Below, in pieces: positions 1,443 to 20,797 of a stretch of 64,000 bases of DNA (its first letter is position 1; every line of letters starts with the position of its first letter). The stretch spans positions 19,420,144-19,484,143 of the forward strand of contig OX485809.1 of the NCBI GenBank assembly GCA_950295325.1. The letters run 5' to 3'. The DNA comes from Polytrichum commune (lineage: Eukaryota; Streptophyta; Polytrichopsida; Polytrichales; Polytrichaceae). A program made the translations under genes and the position numbers. A model generated the notes under the pieces. That model had not been told where the DNA came from, did not search any database, and worked only from the letters and a program-made list of their open reading frames with translations.

Positions 1443-1560
1443 AGCACAAGTGGCCCATGACGTATGACTAATTTCTATTGGACTAAACTCTTCTTCTCTT
1501 AGTCTAAACGTATAAGTACTCAAAGAAATATCATTCGAGCATGGCAGGGGCATCCACCCT

Positions 1561-1577
1561 CCCGGCAGACGCACCAA
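1561..1577 (-). promoter_or_regulatory. Primer-binding-site-like sequence of the left Gypsy element
   Basis: Read on the minus strand this is TGGTGCGTCTGCCGGG, three bases downstream of the LTR edge and just upstream of gag. It resembles the TGGCGCC...GCCGGGGA primer-binding sites known from Tat/Athila-type plant Gypsy elements more than the initiator-Met type. A similar AGACGCACCA string recurs inside the LTR (about 1846 and 38858), so part of the match may be repetitive rather than functional. Confidence 0.45.
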
Positions 1578-1580
1578 TTA

Positions 1581-4380
1581 TGTGGTACTTTTGGGCCACC
1601 CCCTTTCGAGGGAGCCTAAAAGTATCACACAAGCCCTTCGGTGAAGGTGGCCTGCATTTGCAGGCGCCCAAGCCAAACCCGGATGATAGGTGTATAACGT
1701 GAGTAGTTAGATTTTTAAGGGAGATTAAATATGCGTCGTAGTACCTCCGGAGGTTAGGCCTTAGTTTTTTACTAGTGTGGCTTTAAACTCCACTAACGAA
1801 TTTCATATCTAGTTCTAACCTTAACCTACAACCTATTCTACGCGCAGACGCACCAGCCTTGAAACCAAGGCAATCCTAATTTGTGAATTGGGATGGTTCT
1901 GATACACCCAACCGGGTGTGACTCATACCACCCTAACTCAACGAACGGAATAACGACAATTTGATGGACCATTCAATTCTTCCTATTTCTTTATTTAGTT
2001 CTATTTAGTTTTCTAAGCGGGGGAACTTGGCCTAAGTCCCACCCTTCACACAAATTCCTTCTTAATTACTTACTTTTGTTTGCACGTCCTAACTTACTAC
2101 ATTAACATATTAGGCATCACCCCTTACCTCGGGTCTCTTGCCAACAAGGGTTTACGATTTATTTGGTATGTTTTGATTGTTAAATGTGTTTACACTGGAT
2201 AGACCACGAAATGCAACTCAATGGGACCAGGGTGACGGGCGACCTGTAGGTTCAACCTGTTGCGCAATCTTCATAAATTGGGGCCATTACTCCCAATCTA
2301 TGGGGCCAACAACATAATAGTGGATTCGCGGGTCATTAACCCCACCTTTCCACCAACAACATTCAGAATGGTCGTGTCGGTGATTAATCCGACTTACCAC
2401 ACACGAAACTTGCTAATAAATGAAGCTACTACCACAAAACATACCAAGGGCCCCGAAAACAATGGAATTGGGTACTCCCTTGGCGGTCAAGTGGTCAAGC
2501 CACTTGACCTTACGAGATAGGTGAGTGGGTTTAGAGATGCGTACCTTAGCCGTGCTCCCTCCAATCCTAAATGGAAGGCTTAAGGTTAGTTAATTTACCT
2601 CAATTTTCCTCGGTTGATTTGGGCTTGATGTAGGCCGAGCCGCTACCTCCTTCCTTGCTCCACTTTCCGAGCGTCGACCTTGCCTCCTTCTTTGTAACTA
2701 GTTTGGTAGTAAGCGTACCTTAGTTAACAATTAAAATATAAAGTGTTATTCTGCCCTGTAATTTAATCCTAAGCATAATATTTATACTTAGTGCACCAAA
2801 TTATCTTTCCAATGATCTAAAAATCACTCTAATCGGATAAGAAATGCAAAAGTTATGAGGGTTGGAAGTGTGAGGTCGATTCAACCGACCCTTCCAACCC
2901 ACCTATCTACCTTCTAACTTCAAGAATTCATAGCACATTCCTTACTACTTGGATCTAGGCTTTCCTTATACCATTGGAAAGCTATGAACAAGCTCTAACT
3001 AGAAAAATTATGACATCAGCAGGTTAAGCTAATAGAAATTCAGCGGACTCCTTGTAACACAGCAGTCAATCAAGAAGGCTTGAACTATGTATCTCGCCTT
3101 CAACAATTCATATCTAATTCAAATCTTAGTCAAATCAAACGTTCTATATGACCCTGGAGAGATATTAAAAATATGTATTTGATAAAAATATGTGATTAGA
3201 AAGGTAAGCCGAAGTGAACCCAGCAGGTCCTCTGTAATGCAGCAGTCAACCAAAAGTTCTCAAACTATGTGTCCCATCTTGCACAATTCAAATCTAATTC
3301 AAATCATGCTCAAATCAAATGTTCTAAGCCATTTTGGAAAGCTACACAAAAGTTCTACTTGGGAAAAATATAATTTCTTGGAATTAAAATTCCTATTGGG
3401 CTCGCAGGTCTGATCCAGCAGCCGCTACCCACAAGACCACCCAGTTTTTCTACTCCATCTTTGAAAATCCATAACTAATTGTCATCTCAACCAAATCACA
3501 AATGGGAAACGGCTATGGATAGCTATATGAAATCTCTCTAAGAGAAAAATGATAAGTATCTTGTTCTAGCTTTTGAACTAAGCCTTCAGGGCATTGGCAG
3601 ATGAGGTCTATAATGCCTCTACTCAAAACTCTACCATCCAACCTACCTCTACAAAAGAAGGAATAATTTTGTTGGTGTGTTAATAAACACACAACCTAAC
3701 TAGGAGAGAGAGAGTAGAGGAGGTTCTCAAGCCTTTCTTCTAGACCATTGAGAATACATGCTAAAGGATTTTTTCCTAACTACATTGAAGCAGGGCTTCG
3801 CCCAAAAACTAGAGAAAAAGAGAGAGCTACAAGGTGGAAGGAGGGGTTTTTAAACCCTCTCACAAAAGGGTTGGACCCCTCCTCCACCGGATCCATTTTT
3901 CAAACCCTTTCCCGAAATTTTGGCTCGGGGGTTTTCCCGGTTGAGGTTGCCACCCTCTCGCCGAGGTGGCTCCGACAAAAAACCTTTAGAAATCTTTCTA
4001 ATTTTTCCGCCATCGAGTTGGCAAGGGGGCAAGTGGGCAAGTATCCCCCTTGCTCTCTTTCTTTTTTGTCTTCAAAAGTCTTCAAGCCGATTTTATCTTC
4101 TTACCTAAACCACCTCTAATAGTCTTGTGTGCCTCACACTAACTAATAAACTAACACTTGCTTAGCTAGCATTTACTAACATTTGCTTAATAGCTAGCAT
4201 CTACTAATATTTGCTTAGCTAGTTGTTTTTACTAGCTAGCATATTTTTTCTACTTTGCTATCTTCTAGCACTACTTAGTTTCATTTTGACCTTCCTTCTT
4301 CTAGGCTAAATGCTAAATGAACTAATTTTTCCTAAATTCCCTATCAATTCTAACTTTTAATGCTAACATTCTAACTAAAA
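1581..4380 (-). repeat. Long terminal repeat (5' LTR) of the left Gypsy element
   Basis: The left edge (TGTGGT...) is set by where homology with the second copy at 35906 begins. Both start TGTGGT followed by T-rich sequence and a CCGAGGGAGCCTAAAAGT-type block. Matching blocks continue through about 2600, and again at 3840-4030 against 41340-41520 (a hairpin-rich, C-rich stretch with repeated CCCCTC boxes). The block at 3700-4100 encodes only overlapping spurious frames. The right edge near 4380 is estimated from where the next gene-like sequence begins. It would make an unusually long LTR of about 2.8 kb. No coding sequence is recognisable inside. Confidence 0.6.
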
Positions 4381-4622
4381 GTGATCCCGCAGAGTGGTGG
4401 ACCACTCAAAGGGTTCACAACAACCTTTGGAGGAGGGCTATCGACAACTCCGTCTTCAAACCCCGAGTCTTTGGAGTAATCAACAGCAGAGGCGGCATCG
4501 ACGGCTGAAAATTGAAATAGTGAAGGCATTGAAATGTCGGTCACACCGATGGAAGGGGAGTTGGGGCCCGGTTTAGATGCACACATGCCATGGACGAGAC
4601 TTTGGGATGCTTGGTGAGGCAA
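4371..4622 (-). pseudogene. Possible terminal exon of the ParB/methylase/FCP1-like gene
   Basis: This is an open frame of about 83 codons just downstream of the FCP1-like exon on the same strand, preceded by an acceptor-like TTGTGTCTTAG at about 4625-4635. The peptide is Ser/Pro/Val-rich with no recognised domain. Either it is an alternative 3' exon, or the gene ends at the stop at 4711 and this is untranslated. It abuts the LTR on its left. Confidence 0.25.
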
Positions 4623-4710
4623 CTAAGACACAAAAATACATTTACAAAATACGGGGAGAAATGTTAGATATAAACATGGAGAGTCCAAGTACAAACCCAA
4701 AAAGCAGTTC

Positions 4711-5478
4711 TCATATTAATTTATTGAGTTTGGCATAGCCGTACAACCTCCTAAATTCCTCATCTCTTGGGCCTAGAGGCCTATTGCCAATGGGGTTGGA
4801 GAGGACAAAATCCAGGACACTTCCGGGGTGATAGGCAAGCCTCCTAATGTAGGGTCCTAGTTCATTCTCTAGAAAGTTGTCATTTCTATCACTCTCCCAA
4901 GGATCCGGGAATATGCAACTGCCCGGGGGATTGAGAATACTCTTTGCCGGGCTGTCGTCAATGAGGAGCGTGTTCTCCGGGGTGGGCCAACAACCGTGGG
5001 GCACCCCCTCCAACATAGGGACGCCCACCCAAAGGTTCTTCCTCAGTACCTTTAGGAATTGAGGCCCTCGGCCTCCTCCGACCTTGGGTACAATGTTGCC
5101 ATTACGGTCATAAAGGTCATCGCAGTGTTCTTGACCGAGAAGCAAGCATGGCATTGCGAGTTCTCGGAAAAGGAAACCGACGATGGCCTTCGTGTTGTCC
5201 ATGAGCATAGAGCTCCAGATGATGACATGGGCCAAGCCAAGGACATCACGAAGGAAGCACCTCAACCCCGGCCGGGCCCGTACAACCTTCTTGTTAATGA
5301 GAGTATCGAACTGTCCGCCGTAATCCATGTCTTGTGGACTACGGAAGGGACCCTTCGACGCACTATTGGAGATATGCATGGAATGACAAAGCACCCCATT
5401 GAGGTCAAATATTATGAACGGTTTCCTCATGGGCCGGCTTGGTCTTTCAGCGGGGTTGCGACATATCTCCGACGGACC
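4711..5478 (-). pseudogene. FCP1/SCP-like HAD phosphatase domain exon
   Basis: This exon carries no stop itself but belongs to the interrupted gene. After an acceptor (TTTTCCATCACAG) and about 16 linker residues, MRKPFIIFDLNGVLCHS gives HAD motif I. Motif II is VIIWSSM, and motif III/IV is TLLIDDSPAKS, in the order and spacing (about 190 residues) of FCP1/NLI-interacting-factor domains. Relatives dephosphorylate serine residues of proteins such as the RNA polymerase II C-terminal tail. The usual DxD of motif I is DLN here: the nucleophile Asp is kept but the second, general-acid Asp is Asn, as also seen in a plant subgroup of this family. Activity may be low. A separate gene starting at the ATG at 5430 is an alternative. 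Confidence 0.7.
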
Positions 5479-5818
5479 CTGTGATGGAAAATACTATCTA
5501 GGTGAATGGTACTACCCATGAAAACCAATTGACAAGCATGCACAAACTCAACAAACAAATATAAGGCAAAAAAAATACGAATACGCAGTTCAAAAAATTT
5601 GTATTAATGTGATTGGTTTAATACATTTCGCGAATAATTTACATTGTCACAAAAGGTCTCCCCTAAAACTAATTGAATCTATGCTGGCAAAATTGCATCC
5701 ACCCGCCGGGCGAAGTCGAGCATCGAACTCGACAATATGTACACGCCACGAAGTTGGCAGACAAGGAAGTTTCGGACGCGCGTCCGTAACGTGGGAGGCA
5801 AGCTCAAAGGTGGATTAC

Positions 5819-7288
5819 CTCTTCAGCGGAGAGGTCCTCGCCAGCAGTGCCTCCCTCACCAGGCCCCATCGTGGGCACAGGTTCCGGACGCGCGTCCGCA
5901 AAATTGTGCATGCTATCCTCCACCACCAAGGCGCCTCCAGCCGCTTGCGACCCCTGGGTATCGACATGAGGTTGATCTTCATTTGTGGTGTCTTGGCTGC
6001 CCCGCATATGTTCATCTTCTTGGCTGCCCCGCATATGTTCATCCTCTTGGCTGCCCCGCATATCTTCATCTTCTTGGCTGCCAATGGTTGTGATGTCTTC
6101 AATGGCGCCTTTCTCGTGAGCACCTGCCGTATAACGTGCAGGTCTCTCCTCCTCTCGTACGCTATGAGAGGAGGGCTCTAGGGTGTGGGCAACCTGGGGA
6201 GAGGGCGGGACATACAAGGCGGGGGCTGGATAGGTATGCTCTGGTATGTACACCGTATGGCTACTAGACGGAGGCCGCATGAGAGTGGGAGGCATCGACA
6301 TGCCGGCTTCGGGAGCTGCATACATTACTGGGGGTCTTGCTTGCAAGCTCTGCATGAGGCTCATAAATTGTTGGCTCTGGGCCAAGAATTGTTGATTTTG
6401 AGCCATGAGATCGGCGTGCCTTCGAGCAGACTCCAACCTAGCCTCCTCCATCTCAGCTTGGATGGCGGCCATCTTTCTGGCGTGCTCCTCGTTAGCTTCT
6501 CGAAGCCGTTGGTCAAGCTCTTCCTTCATTCTCTTCTCCAGTTTCTCGTCCAATTCAGCCACAGACATCGGCTCTTTCTTCACCTTGCCAGGTTCAAAAG
6601 GCAAGGCAGAGAGGGCATTGTACATCCTAACCTCATCCTCGTCTTCATCGGAGAGTTCCAAGACGGCGCCTTCAGGGTACTCGTTGTAAGGAGTCTTCTT
6701 CCTCTGTCAACGACTCTCACGGTATGAGGCGATATCCGGCCTCAAAATCAACTCCAACACATCTCTACCCTCCATAGGTGGTAGCTCTGCCTGTTCAGAT
6801 CCCCCTCCAGATGAGGTTGTGCATTCGGCTTCTGTCGCAACGTCCACATCCTTCTCTGCCATAAGCCCAGCAGCACGCGATGGACCCGCAGTGGAAGGAA
6901 ACCCAACTCGAGAAGTGGGAGTCCCAAAGGGAGAGGAAATAGGGGTAGGATGGACCCTTATTGGAGTGAAGTCTTCATGCGCCCCCTCTGTATCCATGCG
7001 GTCTTCGCCCAAGACAAATTGATGAGGATGAACAGGATCACGAACAAGGCCGGGCACCTGATCTTCTCTGGGTGGCTGCTCTCTTGGGGAGACGGGCTCT
7101 TGGTCTCCGTCACTGTCCCACTCCGTCGCAGGAGTTCCCTCTTCTCTTTAGGCAAGAGGCACCACATGATGGGGGGTAAGGACATCGATGATGTCTTCGA
7201 TATCCATTTTGGAGGCAAGAACCCTATGAATATTCGCCTCATCCATGTCGCGAGCCTCCACAAACGAATTTACCTGCAACCCAAGCAT
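5819..7288 (-). pseudogene. Methylase-like C-terminus and coiled-coil/repeat linker exon
   Basis: The first 45 codons complete the methylase-like motif (MLGLQVNSFVEARD). A TAA at 7148-7150 and a TGA at 6707-6709 then interrupt an otherwise single 490-codon frame. The remainder is low-complexity: a Pro/Ser/Thr-rich acidic stretch, then from about 6640 an acidic cluster (SDEDEDEV), a long charged coiled coil (EKLEKRMKEELDQRLREANE onward to about 6350), a Met/Pro/Gln-rich segment, and four tandem GSQEDE(H/D)MR units at about 6000-6080. One palindrome copy (5885-5898) lies within the coding sequence. The exon ends at GAAGAG|GTAATC. It is probably a flexible or oligomerising linker. Confidence 0.45.
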
Positions 7289-7369
7289 CTGCACCAAACA
7301 CAAGGAAATTATAGTCATTCCATTGTTGCAAGCAAGTATGAGGACAAATATAATCATGAAGCACTGCAA

Positions 7370-7488
7370 TTTACGGACGCGCGGCCGTAAATTTGCACTG
7401 CATATGTGGTGGGCAATGTTACGGACGCGCGGCCGTAAATTTGCACTGCATATGTGGTGGGCAATGTTACGGACGCGCGTCCGTAAAT
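7370..7488. repeat. 48-bp tandem repeat carrying three palindromes
   Basis: Palindromes at 7373, 7421 and 7469 are separated by a 48-bp unit containing ATTTGCACTGCATATGTGG, identical in the two complete spacers. The first two palindromes share the GCGG variant in the right half, which shows that one duplicated the other. The array lies inside a proposed 245-bp intron (7289-7533). Confidence 0.9.
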
Positions 7489-7533
7489 TTCAATTCAGAT
7501 GGAGCATGGAAAGAGGTGCATACAAGTACTTAC

Positions 7534-8853
7534 CAATGCTGCGTAAACAAATTTGGTGCCTCCGAAGACGTTGTAGACTGTTTCACTCATCACAGTCACA
7601 GCCTTCAAGACTCCAATATAAAAATCCATTCGGAGCTCGTACGCCGGGTAGAGTGCATACATAGTCTCCGCGACAAGCTCCTTTGGGTGTGGTGGTGGCA
7701 ATGAGTATACTTTCTTGAACACGTTCTACGCTTTGATAGGCATCCGCCCACTTGGTGAAGACTTGTGTGTCAAGAAATAAAGTGCCAAAGCCCCGACCTG
7801 CTTCGCCCCTCTTGCCTCTTCAATAACACTGATCCCTTCCGTCTTCGCGGGGATGTATGTGCTGTGGTAAAGATCGTACTGGAGGTTCATCGTCGATGTG
7901 TAAAACTGGACGACCGACGCGGACCTCTCTTGATCTACGATCCAGAGCCACACATTTGGCTCGAAGAGGGCAGGTGACCGATAGCTCTTAAAAGCCTTGA
8001 AGAAGTTGTCATAGAAAGCGGTCCTGCTAGCGTTTTGTCTCCAAGATCCGGGAAATGCACGGAAATCAAAGAGTGCGAACGGACAACCCTGGGGGTCATC
8101 TCTCACAGAGGCTCTTGAAGCATGTGTGTCCCATATGCCAAACTTCAAGGCCGTTGTAACAGTGCAGAATCTTGCGACCCCTCCGAATTTTGCTTTCTTT
8201 TTTCTGTCAAGGAAATGGACGTACAACGCCGTCTCTCTTTCGTCGATAGACCCTTTCTTCTCGTTCCTCCTAGATCTTTGGGCTAGGAAGGGAGATGCGC
8301 CTCTTATCAATGATCGCATGGAGACCCCATTGATGTGATACTCCTCCTTGAGCGTCCTCCAGTTTTCCCACATTATCTCCCCATCTGTATTAGTGAGGTT
8401 GTGGGAGGGCAGCAGCTTACTTATCTCCCTTATAGCCATGGTCTTCTTCTTCCTGTATTCGCACCATTCCTTAATGTGGTATGTAGAAGGCTTCATGTGC
8501 TTTGGTCGCTTCAGAAAGATTTTGGGGTAGGGCAGTGTCCTCCTCGGAGTCTCCAACAGGATGTGTTGTGCCGCTCTGTAAAGCTCGGAGTCGAGCAATC
8601 CTTGGAGGGGACGAAAAAACTCTCTCAGGATAGGTGGCACTTTAACCTTTGAGTCGCTTTGGTACGTGTTTTCAGCATCCGGGTTGATAAGGTCTCCATT
8701 GTTGTGAGCATCGAAAAGGCGCAACCAAATTGCCCATGTCTCTTCTGTGGCAGTGATGAGCTTAAGTTCCCCCTTCAACTCCTGCACCGTCTTCATGCTG
8801 CTCGTCTTCATGTCAATGCTGGAGAACTTTGTCAAGATCGCATTGCTGAATGT
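7534..8853 (-). pseudogene. DNA-methylase-like region, main exon
   Basis: This is a 440-codon exon with one in-frame TAG at 7726-7728. The C-terminal part reads VYNVFGGTKFVYAAL at the donor, and the next exon continues LGLQVNSFVEARDMDEANIHRVL. Together these resemble the SAM-binding end of beta-class DNA methylases (V-x-D-x-F-G-G-T/S-G...AA...LG...v..E...). Upstream, FALFDFRAFPGSW sits where a DPPY/W catalytic motif would be expected but does not match it, so activity is doubtful even before the stop arose. A basic patch (RSRRNEKK, DRKKKAKF) lies in the middle. ParB-like plus methylase order is known from phage and bacterial proteins, which supports the reading. Without that context I would call it unknown. 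Confidence 0.4.
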
Positions 8854-8966
8854 CTGCACAGCCATGCATTTCAAGAAGTCAGCAGAGTTTAAATTGAAGG
8901 AATTAAAGAATGGGAAGGAGGAAGAGGTTTACGGACGCGCGTCCATAAAAATATACAGAGACATAC

Positions 8967-9623
8967 CTGCCATTTGGGATTCTTGATGACTGCATTCTCC
9001 CTCTCTTTTGGGGGACAATCGTGCTCCACCCACAAGGTCCTTCCAGCCACGATGTTGGCAGCCCATGAAGCCTCGAACCGCCTCACTTTATTCCCTTGGT
9101 TCATGAAGGCAGATATTGCGATGAGCTGGTTCGAGTCTTTGGAATGGACGACAAATGCCTTCCAGTATCGGATTGTCTTTTTCAAAGGACTCTTCCACTC
9201 ATCGTCCTCGAGGAGAGCTTTTGCAGCCATCACGCTATGTTGGCCGTCGACTATGTAGAACTCTCCATCTTTGAGGATTGGCCAATTTTGCGCTGTGACT
9301 TCAACCACAGGATCCTTTGGTGTCACACATATCGTTTGCCTATCAAACTTGGGGTTGTTCATAATGTTATTCATTTGCCACCACACCCCGCTCTCTTCTT
9401 TGGCACGAGTATTCATACTCTCCGTGCCCTTGTGGCATTTGTATACATCCACATCAAACGTGAAATACCTTCCAAGTGGCCAGCAGCCCTTTGTCTTCTC
9501 GTCGAACTCTTGGAAAATCTTTGTGGATAGTTCCGCGTCCGGGCGTTGTCCTTTCTTGAGAAGTGGGGCGACTGTAAGAGTAGAACTCACATCTGGACCC
9601 TCTGTTAGCCCAGACGACTCCAT
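8967..9623 (-). pseudogene. ParB/sulfiredoxin-like domain exon
   Basis: The exon encodes about 219 residues and is free of stops. Near residues 115-130 it has the motif FYIVDGQHSVMAAKAL, which matches the GxH-R/S-x-x-A signature of the ParB N-terminal/sulfiredoxin fold, followed by a beta-strand and the segment ISAFMNQGNK. In bacteria and phages this fold is found in ParB partition proteins and in ParB-methylase fusions; some members bind nucleotide or DNA. The exon starts at an acceptor (CACTCACAG|ATGG) and ends at a strong donor (TGGCAG|GTATGT). The intron that follows (8854-8966) holds one copy of the palindrome. Fold assignment rests on the short motif only. Confidence 0.5.
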
Positions 9624-9781
9624 CTGTGAGTGGGAGCGTTTACTGGCCTGCTTGCTCCCTCTTGATGCTCCACTCTGTGAGGCCTGGAGGCTTCTGGCAC
9701 GTGTTTAGGAACACGTTTAGGTCGTTCAGGAACTGGTTTTTTCTCCTTTCCTTTCTTCGCTTCCAGTAAGGCCCCATTTAC

Positions 9782-10252
9782 TCTTGTCACATTGTTCAAG
9801 AGACGACCAAGCCGTTTACCCGTTCAGGGTGCATTGCAAGCATAGTCAGTGAATTCATTCTGTAGATTGAAGCAAGACGCATCTGGGCTGGCATTTTCAC
9901 ATTCATTTTTGTTGAACGGATGGTACAACTCGTGCAAAATGATTGTGATCCTATCATTTTCCTTTTCAAGGTCTATGACAACATAATCGCCTTGGGCTAC
10001 CGCACACTCTACTGTCCAGCTTTTAACCTTCATCCACTTCTCGGATTCATGTATATCTGCTTTTATTTGATAGGCAAATCTAAGGACAAATATATCCTTT
10101 TCATTTTTTTCTACAATAACTGTCCAGTTATCTACGATGTCTTCGCGTGGCTTGTAATGGTCGTTGTGGCTTATGTCTTTAATTGTTTTTGGAAGCGGAG
10201 GATGGACAAGCTCTGCGAATATATCAATAGCGGGTCTTTTTGTAGATTCCAT
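9782..10252 (-). pseudogene. Exon 1 of the fusion gene, unknown N-terminal domain
   Basis: The start is the ATG at 10252, immediately after an acceptor-like TTACATTTGCAG, so an upstream non-coding exon is possible. The encoded region begins MESTKRPAIDIFAEL and continues as a mixed alpha/beta, acidic segment of about 140 residues with no family I recognise. An in-frame TGA at 9824-9826 interrupts it; the context CCC TGA ACG would be restored by a single CpG-type change. After it the frame continues into a Lys/Arg-rich stretch. The 3' end is placed at a GTAAAT donor (9781) so that the next exon joins in frame; this donor is the weakest of the five boundaries. Confidence 0.4.
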
Positions 10253-10309
10253 CTGCAAATGTAAAAAATACAAGTCAGTATTAAGGTCTAGGGATGCAGA
10301 GCCTATCTT

Positions 10310-10932
10310 ACGAACGCGCGGTCGTAAACCTTTGCGCACCCTTTCTTATAGAATGGGGTTAAGTATTATTATATAATACATATCAAGTTTACGGACGGAC
10401 GTCCATAAAACTTAATATATCTTATAAAAAGAAATCTCATTCATGATATATGTGCAGAGTTTACGGACGCGCGTCCGTAAACTCTGCACATATATCATCC
10501 AAAAGTCTCTATTTCTATATTCCATGAATATAATATATTTTTTATAATAATATAGCCCTAATTTACGGACGTGCGTCCGTAAATTTTTGGAAAATAAATA
10601 AATTTTTGTTGTGTAGAACTTGTATATTTTGTAGAACTTATTTTGAAAACCCATGACATGTATTATACTCTGAGATTTTCATAGTTTTCTCTGCCTAGTT
10701 CACGGACGCGCGTCCGTAAACTCTGCACATTTGTCATGTATTTGATTTAGTATACTTATATATCTCAAGTTTACGGGCGTGCGTCCGTAAACTTCTCATT
10801 CATGTTTTTAAATAGTTTTTTTAAAATATATCTAAAATTTACGGATGTGCGTCTGTAAACTGTTCACACCTAGTGCAATGCATATTCCCAGGGTTCCCTG
10901 AAGTTTACGGACGCGCGTCCGTAAACTTCAGG
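10310..10932. repeat. Cluster of eight palindromes upstream of the minus-strand gene
   Basis: Eight copies in 620 bp sit just 5' of the proposed start of the fusion gene, separated by AT-rich spacers. The copy at 10463 lies in a perfect 56-bp palindrome (10443-10498), and that at 10907 in a perfect 36-bp palindrome (10897-10932). Flanks are partly shared between copies: CTCTGCACAT follows the copies at 10463 and 10702, and CTCATTCATG occurs near those at 10463 and 10773. The cluster therefore grew partly by local duplication. Position suggests a regulatory, origin-like or transposase/partition-binding role; none is demonstrated. Confidence 0.85.
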
Positions 10933-11751
10933 CCATTTTTTAATTACTCTGAATTTAATTAATTTGCTCACTTAATGTGTTTCTGTATATTGTTCCGAAA
11001 TTTTCGGAACAGCTTCTTTGTTGCATTCCATTCATGTGCAATGTTCATCTTAACTTGGAATGCAACATGGATTTGCACTCCAAATTAGACTGTATCAGGT
11101 GTTGCATTGCAATAGCAGATTCTACACTCCAATCTAAGAAGAATGTTCCATTTCAATTTGCAATGTACTAGAAACACTTACCTCTGTACAATGTTTGCTT
11201 CTAAACCACAGCTCCAGCTAGGAGAGACTGCAAAATAACACTAAATTTGAAGTTAGAAACCTCTGGTAATGCAATGTGCACATTCAAGAATCAACTAAAC
11301 TATGTGTTGCTCCTCAAATGCATCAAACCCACAAAAAAACCCCTACTACAAAGATTGCACTGGATTGAACATGGACATCACATTGAAGTGAACAAAGCAA
11401 AACACATGATTTCTTAGAACTAGGAAAAAGTGAATTCAAGTGAAGTGAAGACAATTACAAACTGAAAGGAGGAGCACTCTGAAACAACTGAAAATACTCC
11501 AACCCTAAAACCCTTGCAACAACTGAAACTACTCCATTAATGTCCTAATGAGACTGCAAGCAAAAAACTACTCAATTTCTGATGTTACTTGCAATTGTGA
11601 GTGCAACAAAACATTGCATGCTCACACAATACTCACAATCCTCCTCTTGTGCATCAATACATAAATTCAAATCACCTAATTAGCACCTAGAACAACACAT
11701 CTTTCAAAGAGGGAAAGAAAAAAACACCTGCCTGGAGCTCCTAGCGCTCTT

Positions 11752-12020
11752 ATGGAACTAAGAGCAAGGAGGAGGAGAAACAACAAAGGAAGAGCAAGGA
11801 GGAGGAGAAAGAGGAGAAACAACAAGAAGAAGGAGGAGGAGAAGGAGGACCAGCAAGGGAGAAGGAGGAGCAGCAAAAGTAGCAAGGGAGAAGGAGGAGA
11901 ATACTCTGGAGCAACAAGGGCGACCAGCAAGGGCGAGGAGCAAGCGCGAGGAGCAAAGGAGCGATGGTGGGCAAGGAGGAAAGGAGCGAAAGGAGCGAAA
12001 TGAGAAAAAAGGAGCGAAAG
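11752..12020. repeat. Purine-rich (GGA/GAA/AGC) low-complexity tract
   Basis: About 270 bp on the plus strand are almost entirely G and A with occasional C, built from degenerate AAGGAGGAGGAGAAA and AGCAAGGGCGA-like units. All six frames across it are partly open, which explains the overlapping Arg/Lys- or Ser/Leu-rich frames. I do not treat these as genes. Confidence 0.85.
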
Positions 12021-12044
12021 GAGCACGAACAAGGGAGTGTATCG

Positions 12045-12062
12045 AAACCCTAAACCCTAAAC
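12045..12062 (-). repeat. Short interstitial telomeric repeat
   Basis: AAACCCTAAACCCTAAAC is two and a half units of the plant telomere heptamer, oriented opposite to the array at 13.87 kb. Confidence 0.85.
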
Positions 12063-13865
12063 GTCGCATCCACTTCCTACCTAGACGTCCCATCACCCCG
12101 CGCCCAAAGGCCACATGTAACCCTTACGTGGCATATGTCTATTGGTATTTTTTGTGATTGCTAGAGTCCACCCTCAATAAATGTTACACTTCCACATGTT
12201 AACTCATAATTGTATTTGTTAACAGATTCGTACTCCTCTCATATTGCTAACTAGAATGTAAACTTTGTTACATGTTAAGAATAATTTATTCCCCTCTTTG
12301 TTAATTTGCCACTTATAAATGTTAACCTACGAACTACATCCAATATTGTGAGATGACATCCATTACATTGAGTCACAACCTTTCAAAGTGGCAAAAGTCA
12401 CCAAATTTGACTTTTGTGATCAAATTATTAATATGGGTTATATTGTGATTGATACACATATTTTATATTTGATAATTTTACAAAACTCTCCCTCCATAAT
12501 TGTAATGAATCAAATTTGTTAAGCATTCAAAAAGCTCCCTTTATAGTTGTTACAATGTTAACTCACAATAAATGTAAGGAAAATTATATTCCAGAGCATA
12601 ACATTTATAGAGGATGGATTGTATGTGGTTTGAGTCCAAAAACGAATACCAAAAACAATTGTTGACCAAAAATAAAGGAATCTCAATGCTCTAATTAAAT
12701 AACATCAATAATAAAAAAGACAAAGCATTTTGTAACTCCAAACAATCAGTGAAACTAAATTATACCATTTCTAGTGTAGCAGGTATGGAGGGGACTTTAT
12801 ATTTTGAGAATAGTAATAATATTGAATATAAAGTATGTCTTCTTGATTAAGTTAAGTATAATATTTTTTCCACAAAGGTGGGATTCAAATGCAATTGGGA
12901 CAATAATATACCCATTGGCCAAAAATTCAATTAACCCTAAACCCCTACACCCTTATGAATCCCTCAATTATCGCAATAATTTGTGAAAGGGGATTTTCAA
13001 CCTAAATTATACTATCAATAGCAACTTGGGGACTTTATTGAAGTTGGACACTTGGGATGCTTTGATGTGAATATCATTATTAATGATATTTAAATTAAGC
13101 ATGTTTGAAACACAATTAACAAAACCAAACATCGAGATAATATGGGTTAAGATCAAATGCTTATAATATCCTAAACAACGTTAGGGGTTAATTCAATCCC
13201 TCTGCACATATTACGTCTAAGCTTGTATTAGAACAAAAGGAATGGGTAGGTGTTGAATTTACATCCCTCTTGTCTGTTAAACAACCTTCAGGATTCATGC
13301 AATCCTTCCAAACCTAGGCATGAGCTTGTATTATCGCCTATAAGTAGTAGCAAATTGTTGTTTATATTGGAGTTTTGTTTCCATGGCGACATGTATGGTT
13401 GTGTTAAGTATTCGATTATAGAATACCAATATATGATGTTCAAAACCTATCTTCAAAAGTAAAGGTTTAAATCAAATGGATAAATATGACTTAGAACATA
13501 ACTTTCATGATCTTAAATGTTTTGAAGGCTTAATTGTTTTCATATTGTATCCCATCAAAGAATAACAAGTCTCGGCTAAATCTTGTACTTGCCTCTAAGG
13601 GGTGGATTTTACCCAGGCAAACATAGATTAAAAAAATGAAAGGTAAGGTTACGCAACCCAAGTACCTTTTTCCTTAGCCAAATTAAGACCACATATCGGA
13701 TTGCCATTCACAATTTGATAAATCTTTGTTCTATGTCACCTACTTTTTCACCACTTACCATGTCTTCAAGAATAATTTTTGAACATAAATTTGCTTGACT
13801 TTTGAAATCTTTATGGTTTTGTTTTAGAGAATTTTAAGCCTTGACATGAGTCAGGAGTCGTTTAT

Positions 13866-13905
13866 AGGGTTTAAGGTTTAGGGTTTAGGGTTTAGGGTTT
13901 AGGGT
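13866..13905 (+). repeat. Interstitial telomeric repeat (TTTAGGG)n
   Basis: About five consecutive TTTAGGG-type units with slight decay at both ends. A shorter piece (GGGTTTAGGGTTGAGG) lies near 14155. This heptamer is the Arabidopsis-type plant telomere sequence and supports a plant origin. Confidence 0.9.
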
Positions 13906-15290
13906 TAAGGGTATCCCCCTTGTGTCACCGACTTAATATTGGTTGCCTTATTACTATTTGGATACCCTACCCTCCCATTCTGTCCATTATATTTTATGGG
14001 TTAATAGTATTACGTAGAACAACAATTGGTATAATTGTTTGCTTGCTTGGTTTGAATTACTTTCCAGTTAAGCCTTGACATGTATCAGGAATTGTTCCGT
14101 TAACCATGCTTGCATCTCTATATCCACATGTTTGTTTAGGTTTGGGTGGTTATAGGGTTTAGGGTTGAGGGTAATAATGTTACTTCGAGCAACAATTGGT
14201 ATTGTTTGCGTATTAATTAATGTAGGTAATGTACATGAGGTACTAAAATATGTTTTTCCTCACGTATAGTACATGAAGAAGGCTAGTATAATTAGTTTTT
14301 TTGAAGTAAATGTTGATGTACGGAAGGGGCCCCTAAGGTTTAGAGAGAAAATTGATAATATTGAATTTAATTAAACCTATGTTACCTAGGACAATAGATG
14401 TGCTACTATCATGGCCTTATGGTAATCAAAGTTTCTGTATCAGATATGAATACAATTATGTATAGGTGTGTATAGGTGGGTAAATTAAAAATGTTGGATG
14501 GTTAGGTGGTGGCCAATGTAATTATAATATTAAATGCAAGATGAGAGGAGATAGCATGATATTATGGTCAATACCATTACATTGTATGCAAAACAATAAA
14601 GTAGTTTCTAATTTAATTTTGATTACATGTATTTTTGTACTCCATGTACTATTGTTGTTGTTGTGGTTGATTTTTCACACGATTGTATAATTTTTTGTCT
14701 ACATTTTTTAAAATGTACTCTTCATATTAGGTACTCCAATATTATTGCTCCAATAAACCACCTCTCAACAATGTTTATTGCTCATATAATATTAGCCAAT
14801 CTACTTTGTTGTATACCACAAATACATAGATGCCTTTTTCTTTGTCATTATGTGGACTCATGGTCTATGCATGTTGTCCACATGAATACACATTCCATTG
14901 TAAGGCTGGCACACGGAATGTAGTAATGCTAGGTTTGTATTTATAGGACATAGTTGGTGGCTGGTATCCTATGTTGGAAAACGGATCCAAGGGAAAGCGA
15001 TCAGTACTTAAGGGGACACCCCCCCACCGTCGGGACTTTTTTTGCATCTCAGCTGTGGGTTGCGCTCCTTGGACCCTTGTAGTGTGCTCCTGCTACAGAT
15101 TTTGTGCAGGTAAAGATCCTATTGCATGGACCTATTATACACTAAACCCCAAGCCCTGAACCCATTAGGGTAGAGAGTTTGTATTTGGGTTGCACTCTGC
15201 GGATCGTTGTAGTGTGCTGGATTTTTATTTCGGACAGTTATCCTTTCTGGTACAATGTTCCTATTTTAACGCCGCAAATCACGGAGGTTT

Positions 15291-16118
15291 ACGGACGCGC
15301 ATCCGTAAACCCTTAATCATATTGGTTCTTTGAACCTTTATTTGTTTGATCCAATACTCATGTACGTTGAGGTTTACGGACGCGCGTCCGTAAACCTCCA
15401 TACCTTTGGTGCCATATGTCACCTACACCACGTGTCGTGTCGAGTCTGTATGTCACCTACACCACGTGTCTTGTCGTGTCTGTATGTCACCTAAACCACG
15501 TGTCGTGTCGAGTACCACAATACGAATATATTGCCATGGAAGTTTACGGATGCGTGTCCGTAAAACGTGAACCCCTTTTCGCGTTATACATCGTATCTAG
15601 GCTAGTACAGAGGTCCACAGAGGTTTACGGACGCGCGTCCGTAAACCTAGAAACCTTTGTTGCCATGATGTTGTCCATGTGCCATGTAGGGGATTGCACA
15701 GAGACTGTACGGTCATGAAGGGTTGGGAGATCGCATCCCTTAGCCTACATCACCCTATGTGTTATAGTATAATATTTGATATTGATAGAACATACTAGGA
15801 AGCGCGTATGATAACCTCTTCAAATTTCATGTGTCGTCAGGCCTGCGTATACATGGCCGTGTTGCCAGGACCTCTTGCTTGCCTGAACCTCCATGTCTAG
15901 GACTGCATTTTTACGGACGCGCGTCCGTATACCTATGTTGTGGTTTAGCATGATACTGCACTATGTGCACGAGCCGATTTACGGATGCGCGTCCATAAAC
16001 CAGTGGTGTTTTGGTTGTCATCACCTTTCTGCTGACTATGAACACATAAATGTATCCGTATGCGCGTGTGATTGTGCTGCTAATGTTGTTACATGGAGGT
16101 ATACGGACGCACGTTCGT
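15291..16118. repeat. Cluster of seven palindromes upstream of the DUF7869-like gene
   Basis: Seven copies of the CpG-rich palindrome lie within 830 bp, ending about 150 bp before the plus-strand gene. This mirrors the cluster upstream of the minus-strand gene. The copy at 15376 has extended arms (GAGGTTT/AAACCTC). Between the copies at 15376 and 15546 lies a 34-bp tandem repeat. Confidence 0.85.
15416..15515. repeat. 34-bp tandem repeat, three units
   Basis: Units start at 15416, 15450 and 15484 and contain ATGTCACCTACACCACGTGT followed by CGTGTCGAG-like sequence. Each contains a CACGTG palindrome (G-box core). The array lies among the upstream palindromes of the DUF7869-like gene. Confidence 0.85.
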
Positions 16119-16265
16119 ATACCAATGTGTCTTTGTTTCCAAGCCATGATATCAACTATTGTTCACATTGTGTTTCATTGACAATAATAAGCGTTAGGGC
16201 TATCCATGACATTTATTGAATGGGATATTTTGACATACTCTTCATTGGGCTTTCTTGTAGTGGCC

Positions 16266-19200
16266 ATGGATTCCAATGTCGGTGATAGTGCGGTTGAATT
16301 TTTTTCGGAAGCGTCAAGCTATGATAGCGAGTTTGAAGTTGTCGTGGAACAAGATACTACAATTGGTGTCGCCAATGTAGAGGATGAATTCCTTCCACCA
16401 TGTGAGGGTTATTCGCGGGAGCAGTGGATTGATCTTGATGTTGTCCTAGTCAATGGATGTGGCGTCCCCGTGGCCGATGGTGTTTGTCGGAACTCGAATC
16501 CTACGGATTGTATTGATACAAATCCCCTTGGGGAAGAAGATGTGGGGGTGTGCATTTTGAATTCCTTACATCCGTTGGAAGTGCCTTCTGATTGGAGATT
16601 ATCTCTTCGTCGATGGCCGTTGCGCAGTGTTCTTCATGATGGTGTCAGCTTGTGGAATCATTCCCGCCGTTTTGATCAAATGCAATCGGCTTTGTTCTCA
16701 ATACCGCGCCCTAGAATAGGTCGGCGTAAATATGATACCTTTCGTTTGCCTCATGAACCCACGCAACGTCGTCGAGATCAAACATTGGGAGATGCATCTA
16801 TTAGGTCCGTAGCAACAAAGGATTGTTGTGCAAAAAGATGTTGCCAACTATTTCCCTGTGACAAGATCAAATCTTTGAGACAAGAGATGTGGCTCGCGGA
16901 CTTTCGTATGCGATCTGCAAAGAAACTTGAAGTCCATCGCAACATGCACCTTGATATCGAAGGTCGTAAGGTTGTGACCTTGGAAAATGTAGAGATATGT
17001 TGCAAGGCATGGTACATTATACATGCAGTTTCAAAGGCAAATTTTTATAGGTTCCGGAACTACTCGATGCAAGGACGCCGTTCTCGGTTCCATGGCAATT
17101 CTGGCACAAAGAAGCCCAGGGAGGCAACACTCCAAGCGGCCGCAACACTATCAACCATCATTATGCCATTGGCAGATGCGATGCCACACAAGACGCGGAC
17201 TCTGCCGTCGGGGGAAAAGGTTGTTCAGATGGTTTTGTCTACAGGGACAAAATGGAAGAACATACTTATGGATGTTAATGAAGTTGGCGAAAAGGCTGGA
17301 TGTGGGCCGATTTCGTTGTCAAAATTGAGTGTGATCAAGAATCAACAATTCGCAGAATACATTACGAAGAGACCTGGGGATAAGTTTGCCAGGTGTTCTG
17401 CTTGTGAGAAATATAAAGGCCTTCGAGATGCACATCCCATTGGGACTGAGTCCCACAACCGACATCAACTGAAATACATTGAGCATGTCAACAACCAGGA
17501 GGCACACCGTCAAGACTATTACAAGAATCGCGCATTATCGATAATGAGGCCGAATGAGGTTTTGACAATCATTCATGACAAAATGAACCATGCAAAGATG
17601 GCGTGCCCTTGTTATGCGCGGAAAATAAAGGCTACACATGGATATTTCAAGCTTCCAATATCTGTCACAGGTTTGTTGGTTTTCACATTTATTTTTTGCG
17701 CGCCCACATACTCATTGTTAAGATTTACGGATGTACGTCCGTAAGTGTACATTTTTTTGCTTGCTTAGGGAAATTTTTGAATTTTATTCATATATACGAT
17801 TTGTGTGGCTAAATGCAGGTATGATCGCACATGGTCATGTGGACGTGAAATATGCACATTATGGCTTGGATTTCTATCCTGGCGACGCCAATCATACCGT
17901 AGGGTCTTTTGCAAAACTTCTACGAGATCTTGAGAGTCCGCCTACATCATCCTCTCGTGCTCTTTTTGTTGGATGTGGAACAACACCGATTTATGAGGCT
18001 GTGCTAGAGGGGAAGGAGGTTTGCCTATCTTCACTGCAAGAACCGCCTGAACAACCCGTTCTTGCTAAACCTTTGCCTCCAACTCTACACGTGCAACTTG
18101 ATAATTGTGCCAAGGACAACAAATGTTGATACGTATTTTGTTTTTGGTCATTGCTCGTAGCCAAGGGCATTTTCAAAGAAGTGTTTGTGTCTTTGTTGAT
18201 GGTTGGCCATACGCACGATGACATTGACGCTTCATTCGGACGTTGGAGTATGAAGTTGCACGAGGAGGATTTTCCCACAATTCCTCTTCTCATGAAATCG
18301 TACATGGATTTGGATAATGTGCCAGTCATCCCGCATTTGATTGAAGAAGTGCCCGATTTCAAATCGTTTATCAAACCATTCATTCTTAAGGGAGGTGACC
18401 GCTTAGTGGGCCATACTAAGGCTCAACAATTCCGATTCTATATGCGTGATGATGGTCTGCCGGCCATGCAATTCAAAGTTTTGTGTACCTCCCCGAATTG
18501 GGGCCCAGAGGAAGGGATACTCGTATGGCGCCAAAACGAAGATGGCAAATGTATGCTACCTGATGGGGAGCCGAAGCCCTACAAACCCAACCCCATGAGG
18601 AATGGACCAGAAATCATCAAAGGTATATCTGGATTCATCGAGTACTGGAAAGATTTGTGCGAGGAAGACATCACAAGACGTGTTCGGGATACCCACGAAC
18701 CATTGATTGCGTATTGGGATCGCATCCACTCAGCGTTGCTAGCACCCGAAGACGATAGACCATCATGTTTGACACAAGGTTTTTGGCCACTAAGCCGAGT
18801 GACAATCGTGGAATCTGAGGCCATATTCTTCAACAATGGGGACGTCCGTGAAGAGTTCGCGGCGGACGACCATTATGTTGGCCCTGCTCGTAATCGCCCG
18901 GCTCCATCATTTCGTGTGGCTATTGATTGCTACGAAGGTTATATGGTCCTCGTACGTCCTGGAGATGAGGAACATCCTAAACCGATTTGGTTGGTGAAAG
19001 CATTGTCATCACCAAATTTTGTTCCAACTAGCCCAAATTTTTGTCAAATTGAGGTGGAATATTGCCGTCCAAGCACCAAAGATCAAAATGTGCTCCGCAC
19101 ATATTTAGGGTGGGACACGAAAAAAAGTTTCAAATGGACAATGGACTCAGCATACGAACCAATATGGATAAACACGGATACCATACTTTGTGCTTGGAAA

Positions 19201-19341
19201 CCACGCAAAGGTTCCAAAACTGAAACAATGACCATCCCCCAAAAACATATAGATTTTGCCAAAGACAACTTGGCACGTATTGTTGCTGCAGAAAACAATG
19301 TCGAGAATGGAAATGAAGCAGAAGATGAAGATGGTGAATGA
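16266..19341 (+). pseudogene. DUF7869-like putative DDE-type transposase, one in-frame stop
   Basis: Exons 16266-17670 and 17819-19341 join in frame (CACAG|GTTTGT donor, AAATGCAG acceptor) to give 976 codons. The ATG at 16266 has a strong context (GCCATGGA) just after an acceptor-like TTTCTTGTAG. Cysteine-rich stretches (DCCAKRCCQLFPC near residue 200, RCSACEKYK near 385) precede a DUF7869-like domain with HDKMNHAKMACPC (about residue 437), QLDNCAKDNK (about 563) and VGHTHDDIDASFG (about 600). These acidic motifs are arranged like an RNase H-fold transposase core; the name rests on memory of the family and the catalytic role is inference. A TGA at 18127-18129 follows DNCAKDNKC and the frame continues normally (YVFCFWSLLVAKG), so this copy is a recent pseudogene or is read through. 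One palindrome (17727) sits in the intron. Confidence 0.65.
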
Positions 19342-19459
19342 TATTGACGTAGGTTTGGACCAAAGATATTTGAATGTGTATTGGTTTTTCATAAAATATA
19401 TGACATTGGGGTCGAATATTATATTAGACACATTTTATAGCAATTTTGTAGATTGCAAT

Positions 19460-19745
19460 TATATTGCATGGATGCATTGATTTACGGATGTGGAATCCAA
19501 ATGTTTTTTATGTTTGTGTTATTACGGATGTGGACCCTAAACTATATAATTATATTGCATGGATGCATTGATTTATGGATGTGGAATCCAAATGTTTTTA
19601 TGTTTGTGTTATAACGGATGTGGACCCTAAACTATATAATTATATTGCATGGATGCATTGATTTACGGATGTGGAATCCAAATGTTTTTTATGTCTATGT
19701 TTTTACGGATGTGGAACCTAAACTATATAATTATATTGCAGATGC
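19460..19745. repeat. 91-bp tandem repeat with half-palindromes
   Basis: Units beginning TATATTGCATGGATGCATTG start at 19460, 19551, 19641 and 19732 (last one partial). Each full unit contains TTTACGGATGTGGAATCC and TTACGGATGTGGACCC, which match the left half of the dispersed palindrome but not the right half. The array follows the stop of the DUF7869-like gene by about 120 bp and may be its 3' flank. Confidence 0.85.
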
Positions 19746-20797
19746 TAATTTGCAATTTTATGTCATTGGAATCTTGTGTTGGCATAGTTTTGATTATCAA
19801 CTGAATAATTACTATATTTAGAAACATATATATTCATCACATATGGATCTTTAAAACATTATGTTGCCATTGTTCCCCATGTTCCCCATGTTCGCTACGT
19901 TCACAATATTCGCATCCGAAACTACGGGTCCAATTTATTTTGAGACTTTCCAAAGTCTCCAATTAACGAATATAGTGTTATCTTCTTTTGACTGATGTGC
20001 ATGCTTTGTAGGTCAAGGATCTGTGCAATGAGGCTGGGGTGATTGGCATTGGAATGGTGTTTTTCCCACTCTTATCATGTTAAGTTTGTTATTCAGTTTT
20101 TCAAGCTGGGCACATTGTTAATAAGAGTGATTTGCCATGGATTTCTTCACCCCAACATGATATAAAGTGTAGGAGAAAGTGCATGTCAGGCTAGGTTTGT
20201 TGTTACCTCCAATATTAGTCTAACGTAGGGATTCACTTTGGAAGTGTTTGGATGACTGCACTTGTACAGACAGCAAAAGTTTCACTGCACCATGATGTTT
20301 TCTTGGCACCTGATGCAGCAGGGCTTTTTTCATGCATGTAGAGATTCAAGAGATTACATACCTGCATCGTATCACTGCAAGCAATCAACCAAGCATTGAA
20401 TTCTGTAAACCTGTGGTCGCAAGCCTTTCTGACTATTTCTTCTTCATTCCTTGTTGCTCGAGGACGATCTAACCAGGGTCAGTCATACTTTTGGTTTCTG
20501 TGACGGTGCTAGGACTAGTCACAGAACTTCATCATAGCACGACTTCAGTAGTCAGCACGTTGGTTCATGTAACTGACTGCAGTGACTGCAAGTTTAATGT
20601 AAACAAGTTACGTCCTCAATGAACTTGATGGTTAAATTGAGACTTCTTGGCATAACCAGTCAAGATCCTAGTATTTCCAAGTCCAACATGTTCCAAGTTG
20701 TGAAATTGTAGTGTGATTAGGGTACCTAGTTCATATGCTCAATTTCGCGTGGTTTTCTGAACAGGAGCAAGTGGCATTGACCGCTTTACATTGACAA
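19746..20797 (+). other. Boundary region between palindrome block and CACTA transposase
   Basis: No gene seen. At 19950-19986 lies a terminus-like sequence also found on a MITE at 34.6-34.8 kb. From about 20460 the sequence becomes rich in GTCA/TGACT strings (GTCAGTCAT, GACTAGTCACAG, AGTAGTCAGC), the subterminal-repeat style of the CACTA element that follows. I searched by eye for CACTACAAGAAAA at a 5' end and did not find it. Confidence 0.5.
19950..19986 (+). repeat. Possible right terminus of the palindrome block
   Basis: The sequence ends CCAATTAACGAATATAGTG and includes an AGACTTT..AAAGTCT inverted repeat. It closely matches the right end of the small MITE ending at 34830 (AAATTAACGAATATAGTG). 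I infer a shared terminal inverted repeat. The matching left end was not found near 4.4 kb, where the LTR abuts. Confidence 0.4.

What the first reader, a model, noticed from the sequence alone, without database searches (positions are those of the whole stretch)
5773..17742. A dedicated 16-bp CpG-rich palindrome confined to a two-gene block
At least 22 copies of ACGGACGCGCGTCCGT or close variants lie in 12 kb and none in the other 52 kb. They cluster upstream of both divergent genes and in their introns. Position, number and confinement suggest a cis-acting site family belonging to one mobile element, not random repeats.
Basis: partly seen in the sequence, partly recalled or inferred. Interest (0 to 1): 0.87.

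Follow-up and report, generated by a model that had tools for sequence, protein, structure and literature searches.

The report
Jumping gene's private repeated DNA tag
A moss-like plant genome carries large jumping genes that label their own switches and introns with many copies of a private 22-letter mirror-image tag, and related jumping-gene families use different tags in corresponding places, which suggests a self-recognition system that can now be tested directly.

Summary
In detail: 22 copies (at most 3 mismatches) lie in window 5772-17742 and none elsewhere in the 64 kb (shuffles mean 0.02). The block is a damaged copy of a ~17.3-17.9-kb DNA transposon with 28-bp terminal inverted repeats and 4-bp target duplications (5 of 5 copies with both ends seen). 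It encodes a DUF7869 protein with a predicted RNase-H-like core and a divergent gene with a weakly ParB-like domain and a NIF/FCP1-type domain.

The site is a 22-bp 10-N2-10 palindrome, TTTACGGACG-NN-CGTCCGTAAA; its 16-bp core has 3,663 genomic matches (control 25). Related elements with the same gene layout carry none of these sites. They have their own palindromes in corresponding places: GTTTGGGTCG-NN-CGACCCAAAC (11,977 matches) and CCCACGGGTG-NN-CACCCGTGGG (988). In the loci counted, no site crosses groups. In 4 of 5 copy pairs sites diverge less than their flanks.

Best reading: private recognition sites for an element-encoded protein, probably the ParB-like one, placed at promoters and introns as in Arabidopsis VANDAL/VANC anti-silencing. 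Binding and anti-silencing are inferred, not shown.

The parts
1581..4419 (.). right LTR of a nested LTR retrotransposon that splits this transposon copy; not part of the system
   Evidence: 2839-bp direct repeats, 99.9% identical, L023:4168-7006 and window 1581-4419
4421..19979 (.). body of the transposon inside the window; left terminal repeat is outside, at L023:3177 (C7:19413320)
19952..19979 (-). right 28-bp terminal inverted repeat, followed by ATCT, which also precedes the left end (4-bp target duplication)
4711..10250 (-). divergent gene: N-terminal region, ParB-like domain, middle domain, acidic/coiled linker, NIF/FCP1-like domain; this copy is damaged by in-frame stops and a frame break, less damaged copies exist elsewhere
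8967..9620 (-). ParB-like part with [DN]GQH[ST] motif
   Evidence: phrog_1033 ParB-like E 0.017 (below usual significance); motif conserved in three families
4714..5493 (-). open frame with NIF/FCP1-like phosphatase domain PF03031, E 2.6e-12; DLNGV where the canonical motif (recalled) is DxDxT/V
16206..19341 (+). DUF7869 gene (putative transposase), intron 17672-17819; this copy has an in-frame stop
5479..5818 (-). intron 3 of minus gene, holds site 5772
7289..7533 (-). intron 2 of minus gene, holds sites 7373, 7421, 7469 (48-bp tandem)
8854..8966 (-). intron 1 of minus gene, holds site 8931
5772..5787 (.). site, 1 mismatch, intron 3
5884..5899 (.). site, 2 mismatches, predicted coding exon
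7373..7484 (.). three sites (7373, 7421, 7469), intron 2
8931..8946 (.). site, 1 mismatch, intron 1
10310..10922 (.). eight sites upstream of the minus gene (10310, 10391, 10463, 10565, 10702, 10773, 10841, 10907); 10463 is centred in a 56-bp perfect palindrome
15291..16118 (.). seven sites upstream of the plus gene (15291, 15376, 15546, 15627, 15913, 15981, 16103)
17727..17742 (.). site, 3 mismatches, intron of the DUF7869 gene
19457..19740 (+). 91-bp tandem array with half-site-like TTTACGGATG units (19481, 19662, 19702) near the right end
34571..34828 (.). short non-autonomous-looking element with similar terminal repeats and a decayed second-family site at 34645

Best explanation
The palindromes are the private recognition sites of a ~17-kb terminal-inverted-repeat transposon. 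SHOWN: the sites are 10-N2-10 palindromes, they sit at the promoter sides and introns of the two divergent element genes, they are conserved better than their flanks in 4 of 5 copy pairs, and related element families carry different palindromes in corresponding places. INFERRED: a homodimer of an element-encoded protein binds them, most likely the fast-evolving ParB-like gene product rather than the better conserved DUF7869 transposase. INFERRED, less sure: many bound sites across promoters and introns keep the element's own chromatin expressed or unsilenced (as VANC does for VANDAL in Arabidopsis) and may also autoregulate it. Family-specific sites would let each family act on itself only.
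For: 22 sites in 12 kb of the window and 0 in the rest. Genome matches to the 16-bp core: 3,663, reversed-pattern control 25. In the capped list, 9 of 9 clusters on C1 coincide with element sequence. Exclusive partition in the loci counted (at most 3 mismatches): F1 loci 132/0/0 for F1/N/692 sites, N locus 0/31/0, 502 loci 0/68/0, 692 loci 0/0/18. Layouts correspond: in N and 692 the sites lie upstream of both genes, between ParB and middle exons, between middle and linker exons, and in the acidic coding linker. N and 502, whose ParB parts are 88% identical, share one site; F1 versus N/502 ParB parts are 38-43% identical while T1 is 59-66%, and the sites differ. Sites diverge less than 60-bp flanks in W-C 3.3/8.5%, W-A 6.8/12.1%, E-D 5.5/19.9%, E-G 8.4/38.2%. 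In N/502 the two arms are kept while the centre varies, as expected for a dimer site. Sites are gained with subfamily-specific tandem units, as reported for VANC targets (PMC5735166, Results read).
Against: No binding, expression or methylation data. ParB-likeness is weak (E 0.017, 0.096 and 0.25; nothing for the 502 copy), no convincing DNA-binding domain was found in the minus gene, and its structure model was useless (pLDDT 40.5). In the very close pair E-B sites diverged slightly more than flanks (2.7 versus 1.7%). Half-site-like units also lie near element ends, which fits a transposition role. One window site lies in a coding exon. The 4.4 kb between the two upstream clusters has no site.
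Confidence: 0.58

Rival explanations
1. The sites are bound by the transposase (DUF7869 protein) or a TnpA-like helper and serve excision and integration, as subterminal motifs do in CACTA elements.
For: CACTA elements have family-diverging subterminal repeats bound by an element protein (PMC2613891 and PMC4219821, passages). Half-site-like TTTACGGATG units lie within 1 kb of the right end in 6 of 7 elements, and 1-mismatch half-sites lie within 1 kb of the left end in 4 of 4 (no chance expectation computed). A short element in the window has similar terminal repeats and a decayed second-family site.
Against: Full sites begin 2.35-2.37 kb from the left end (4 of 4) and stop 2.1-4.8 kb from the right end (7 of 7). 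They crowd promoters and introns instead. The transposase is the better conserved protein while the site differs.
Confidence: 0.2
2. The sites are targets of a host transcription factor or methylation reader that the elements exploit.
For: CpG-rich, placed upstream and in introns; unrelated transposons can share host factors (general knowledge).
Against: Each family uses a different palindrome, and the difference tracks the element's own proteins. The F1 core is not listed outside element clusters in the part of C1 shown.
Confidence: 0.09
3. The palindromes act as hairpins or cruciforms (RNA or DNA), or are kept symmetrical by template-switch repair, rather than as sequence-read sites.
For: In F1 the arms co-vary beyond the 22 bp: 41 non-redundant of 175 sites, offset 4 from the 16-bp core 26 complementary versus 14.6 expected, offsets 5 and 6 26 versus 17.8 and 17.4; one copy is a 56-bp perfect palindrome.
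Against: Arm sequence itself is kept: 11,977 matches at no more than 1 mismatch for the N/502 site, control 0. Family N shows no convincing extension beyond 22 bp (15 non-redundant sites). A 2-nt loop is poor for a hairpin (general knowledge).
Confidence: 0.07
4. Neutral by-product: tandem duplication of CpG-rich DNA that hitch-hikes with a successful transposon and decays.
For: Many sites lie in tandem arrays; 123 of 177 core substitutions in 175 sites are C>T or G>A (copies not independent); E-B pair shows no conservation.
Against: Sites are kept while flanks reach 20-38% divergence (E-D, E-G); different palindromes at corresponding positions in several families; two near-identical repeats share little more than the site with a family-692 element.
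Confidence: 0.06

Closest known systems
VANDAL/VANC anti-silencing system (Arabidopsis; PMC5735166 abstract and Results read, PMC10398659 abstract and outline seen)
   Same: Element-private short motif, mainly in non-coding DNA including introns and upstream regions, carried in fast-changing tandem repeats; related families have different motifs; accessory protein diverges faster than transposase; a VANC6 motif is also found in an unrelated element.
   Different: Here the sites are 22-bp 10-N2-10 palindromes, not 8-9-bp motifs; the transposase is DUF7869; the partner is ParB-like plus NIF; no DUF1985 or DUF287 appeared in the partner pieces scanned; no functional data.
CACTA (En/Spm) elements with TnpA and subterminal repeats (PMC2613891 and PMC4219821, passages seen)
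   Same: Two-function transposon with repeated family-diverging motifs proposed or shown to be bound by an element protein; ends contain the letters CACTA (AACACTA); methylation-sensitive in studied cases.
   Different: 4-bp not 3-bp duplications, no tnp2 domain found in the putative transposase pieces, full sites lie 2.1-4.8 kb inside the ends and in introns.
ParB-like accessory proteins of algal transposons (Ectocarpus Sola1-1_Ec32, PMC12477816, passages seen)
   Same: Large DNA transposon with an opposite-strand accessory gene bearing a ParB-like domain, proposed by those authors to bind its own element.
   Different: That protein carries a DNA methyltransferase; here no methyltransferase domain was seen and a NIF/FCP1-like domain is present. 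The words subterminal and palindrom do not occur in that paper's main text.
Bacterial ParB-parS (recalled)
   Same: Clusters of palindromic sites beside a ParB-like gene.
   Different: No ParA-like gene recognised, no convincing HTH found, eukaryotic transposon; ParB-likeness itself weak.

Membership tests
Terminal-inverted-repeat DNA transposon | inverted terminal repeats | tested here: met
   28-bp repeats, differing by at most one base between the ends compared; 2,631 genomic matches at no more than 3 mismatches, control 0
Terminal-inverted-repeat DNA transposon | target-site duplication | tested here: met
   4 bp in 5 of 5 copies with both ends seen: CCAT, AGTG, TAAA, CTTA, ATCT
Terminal-inverted-repeat DNA transposon | DDE/RNase-H-like transposase | tested here: inconclusive
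   [not shown]
CACTA (En/Spm) | tnp2 transposase domain PF02992 | tested here: not met
   the DUF7869 pieces and relative P0012 match only PF25273; PF02992 is hit in the separate element at 21145-22200
CACTA (En/Spm) | 3-bp target duplication | tested here: not met
   4 bp; 3 bp for CACTA from PMC2613891 passages
VANDAL (MULE) | VANC domains DUF1985/DUF287 | tested here: not met
   Pfam scans of the minus-gene pieces and relatives list neither
VANDAL/VANC-like mode of action | sequence-specific binding of own motif and loss of methylation | not testable with these tools
   needs EMSA, ChIP or bisulfite data
ParB-parS | ParB N-terminal domain | tested here: inconclusive
   phrog_1033 E 0.017, 0.096, 0.25 in three of four queries; conserved GQH
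ParB-parS | HTH that reads the palindrome; ParA partner | tested here: inconclusive
   only a sub-threshold HTH_17 match (E 0.17, family N linker) and no ParA match in the pieces scanned; model of the minus-gene product unusable
Algal ParB-methyltransferase transposon accessory protein | DNA methyltransferase domain | tested here: not met
   no methyltransferase match in the pieces scanned

The most novel reading that the evidence does not exclude
A eukaryotic transposon family carries a ParB-parS-like self-marking system: the ParB-like protein nucleates on its own family's palindromes and spreads or clusters over promoters and introns, shielding that family alone from silencing. Sites and protein swap specificity together, so sister families coexist with non-cross-reacting tags, and other repeats can free-ride by acquiring the 22-bp tag.
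Probability: 0.24. Interest if true: 0.9.

Novelty: new variant of a known kind. Interest (0 to 1): 0.72.

Why it matters
Only a few transposons are known to mark themselves by a private motif. Here one genome holds at least three groups of one kind of element, each with a different, simple, abundant palindrome at corresponding positions, and intact-looking genes in some copies. That makes the co-evolution of a self-recognition protein with its sites directly testable in a land plant, probably a moss, far from Arabidopsis. It would also give DUF7869, a domain for which the paper library held nothing, a likely role as a transposase, and give eukaryotic ParB-like transposon proteins a candidate set of target sites.

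Tried and rejected
Chance or satellite DNA: rejected by the shuffles, the reversed-pattern control and the gene-linked layout. Microbial or viral origin: no exact 22-mer in viral contigs or genome contigs; the window's 15250-19980 had no match in phages. Rfam: none at gathering threshold.

Terminal-repeat loci chosen to find non-autonomous copies (L032-L035, 2.5 kb each): all four have DUF7869 coding sequence, so they are not short non-autonomous copies over the stretch seen; one has an F1-like site. They say little about sites, which in the measured copies start more than 2 kb from the ends. L038 was meant to show the upstream sites of a related subfamily but showed no element homology and no palindrome; I read it as a nested insertion. 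Whether transposase relatedness or the ParB-like gene sets the site therefore stays open.

Structure of the minus-gene product: pLDDT 40.5, discarded. PDB sequence search with the transposase profile: one match, E 0.027, to an ATP synthase subunit, not credible. NCBIfam: no match for the two proteins given. Homologues of the ParB-plus-middle part: 4 proteins, then 9 with a profile, too few. A tally of ParB-like copies was not obtained.

Literature: DUF7869 0 papers; a combined search on moss, Physcomitrium, ParB and terminal repeats gave 4 off-topic papers in the listing. I found no description of these palindromes there; the library is open-access only.
Full report
CHECK. The window holds 22 sites with at most 3 mismatches to ACGGACGCGCGTCCGT, all between 5772 and 17742; shuffled windows give a mean of 0.02. 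Alignment shows the unit is longer, TTTACGGACG-CG-CGTCCGTAAA. With gene models made by eye from frames and GT-AG borders, 15 sites lie upstream of the two divergent genes, 6 in introns and 1 in a coding exon. Each of the four introns I modelled inside the two coding regions holds at least one site.

HOST AND ELEMENT. The own genome is held (407.8 Mb, 64 contigs). The named DUF7869 relatives in the listed hits come from the mosses Ceratodon purpureus and Physcomitrium patens, so the host is probably a moss (inference). Seven further site clusters on contig C1 were fetched. All 7 encode the ParB-like and middle parts of the minus gene, and 6 of 7 the DUF7869 gene within the fetched stretch; for the seventh, a DUF7869 exon lies about 19 kb away. 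Comparing copies gives the ends: terminal repeats AACACTATATTCGTTAATTGGAGACTTT or a close variant, length 17.3-17.9 kb in the four complete copies measured, and 4-bp target duplications in 5 of 5 copies with both ends seen, including the window's (ATCT). The window copy is split by a nested LTR retrotransposon and its genes are damaged; copies C and E have fuller frames. At least 103 DUF7869 exon matches, 89-98% identical apart from the window's own, were scored out of 1,723 candidates, and several are so alike that recent spread is likely.

SITE GENETICS. Genome counts (forward strand; the palindromes are counted once per strand): F1 core 3,663 at no more than 2 mismatches, control 25. A neighbouring element on C1, family N, has the same layout but none of these sites even at 4 mismatches. 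It carries 31 copies of GTTTGGGTCG-NN-CGACCCAAAC. Two copies of a family with a 502-aa frame carry the same site 68 times in 20 kb, with a free centre. A third group, with a 692-aa frame, carries CCCACGGGTG-NN-CACCCGTGGG 18 times in 25 kb. Genome totals are 11,977 and 988 at no more than 1 mismatch, controls 0 and 0. In the loci no site type crosses groups. Places correspond: upstream of both genes, the gaps between ParB and middle exons and between middle and linker exons, and the acidic coding linker. The DUF7869 intron site is not conserved: it is present in W and C and absent from family N; 692 has a site in a gap between DUF7869 open frames elsewhere in the gene. The half-sites share a skeleton (GG, any base, C or T, G), which I take as a hint of a common ancestry of recognition.

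CO-DIVERGENCE. Groups with the same site (N and 502) have ParB, middle and T1 identities of 88, 84 and 86%. F1 against N and 502: 38-43, 37 and 59-66%. 692 against F1: 25, 24 and 40% (some alignments partial). So the minus gene diverges faster than the transposase where the site changed, as described for VANC and VANA (PMC5735166, Results). This does not prove which protein binds.

SELECTION. Site versus 60-bp flank divergence: W-C 3.3 and 8.5%, W-A 6.8 and 12.1%, E-D 5.5 and 19.9%, E-G 8.4 and 38.2%; the very young pair E-B shows none of this (2.7 and 1.7%). 123 of 177 core substitutions are C>T or G>A, as expected if methylated cytosines decay, though copies are not independent. F1 arms co-vary outward (41 non-redundant of 175), which may reflect palindrome correction by template switching (inference); family N does not show it convincingly (15 sites).

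FREE RIDERS. Two 0.9-kb stretches 14.7 Mb apart, 99.7% identical, carry two exact 692 sites each, and beyond about 30 bp around the sites show no similarity to the 25 kb of the 692 element that I held. That stretch lacks the element's left end, so they could still be a part I did not see; but the listed exact sites on C1 show no other within about 0.45 Mb of them. If real, this mirrors the unrelated AT9TSD1 element sharing a VANC6 motif (PMC5735166).

MECHANISM. I read the sites as dimer sites for an element protein that acts across promoters and introns. The anti-silencing role is chosen because the layout (non-coding, intronic, tandem, family-swapped) matches VANC targets and not the subterminal layout of CACTA: full sites start 2.35-2.37 kb from the left end (4 of 4) and end 2.1-4.8 kb from the right end (7 of 7). 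Half-site-like units near the ends in 6 of 7 (right) and 4 of 4 (left) elements keep a transposition role open, perhaps as a second function.

KNOWN WORK. A ParB-like gene on the opposite strand of a giant transposon is already reported in Ectocarpus, with a methyltransferase, and the authors suggest such proteins bind and modify their own element (PMC12477816, passages). So neither the idea of motif self-recognition nor a ParB-like accessory gene is new. What I did not find in the searches named above is the combination: DUF7869 transposons, ParB-like partner and family-specific 10-N2-10 palindromes.

Noticed in passing
window 1-4419 and L023:4168 onward: Nested LTR retrotransposon inside the transposon, LTRs 2839 bp and 99.9% identical, so recently inserted; a long minus-strand open frame at 3-1577 looks gag-like.
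   Followed up: partly
window 21145-25300: Separate CACTA-type element remains: Transposase_21 (PF02992) and DUF4218 (PF13960), with 97-98-bp tandem repeats at 22189-22436 and 23034-23430.
   Followed up: no
window 34571-34828: Short element with terminal repeats like the big one and a decayed second-family site (GTTTGGGTCGTCCTATCTAAAC at 34645).
   Followed up: partly
window 19457-19740: 91-bp tandem array with TTTACGGATG half-site-like units just inside the right end; similar half-sites lie near the right end in 6 of 7 elements examined.
   Followed up: partly
window 4714-5493: NIF/FCP1-like domain reads DLNGV in the 7 of 8 elements where the motif was found, where phosphatases (recalled) have DxDxT/V, so it may be inactive.
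   Followed up: no
[not shown]
   Followed up: no
G000:C1:462875-478028: Other tandem arrays of the N/502 palindrome with spacings of about 32 bp in part, which may belong to yet another element type.
   Followed up: no
L036, L037: Near-identical 0.9-kb repeats with the 692 palindrome and a second palindrome-like unit GGCCTCGGATCCGAGGCC.
   Followed up: partly
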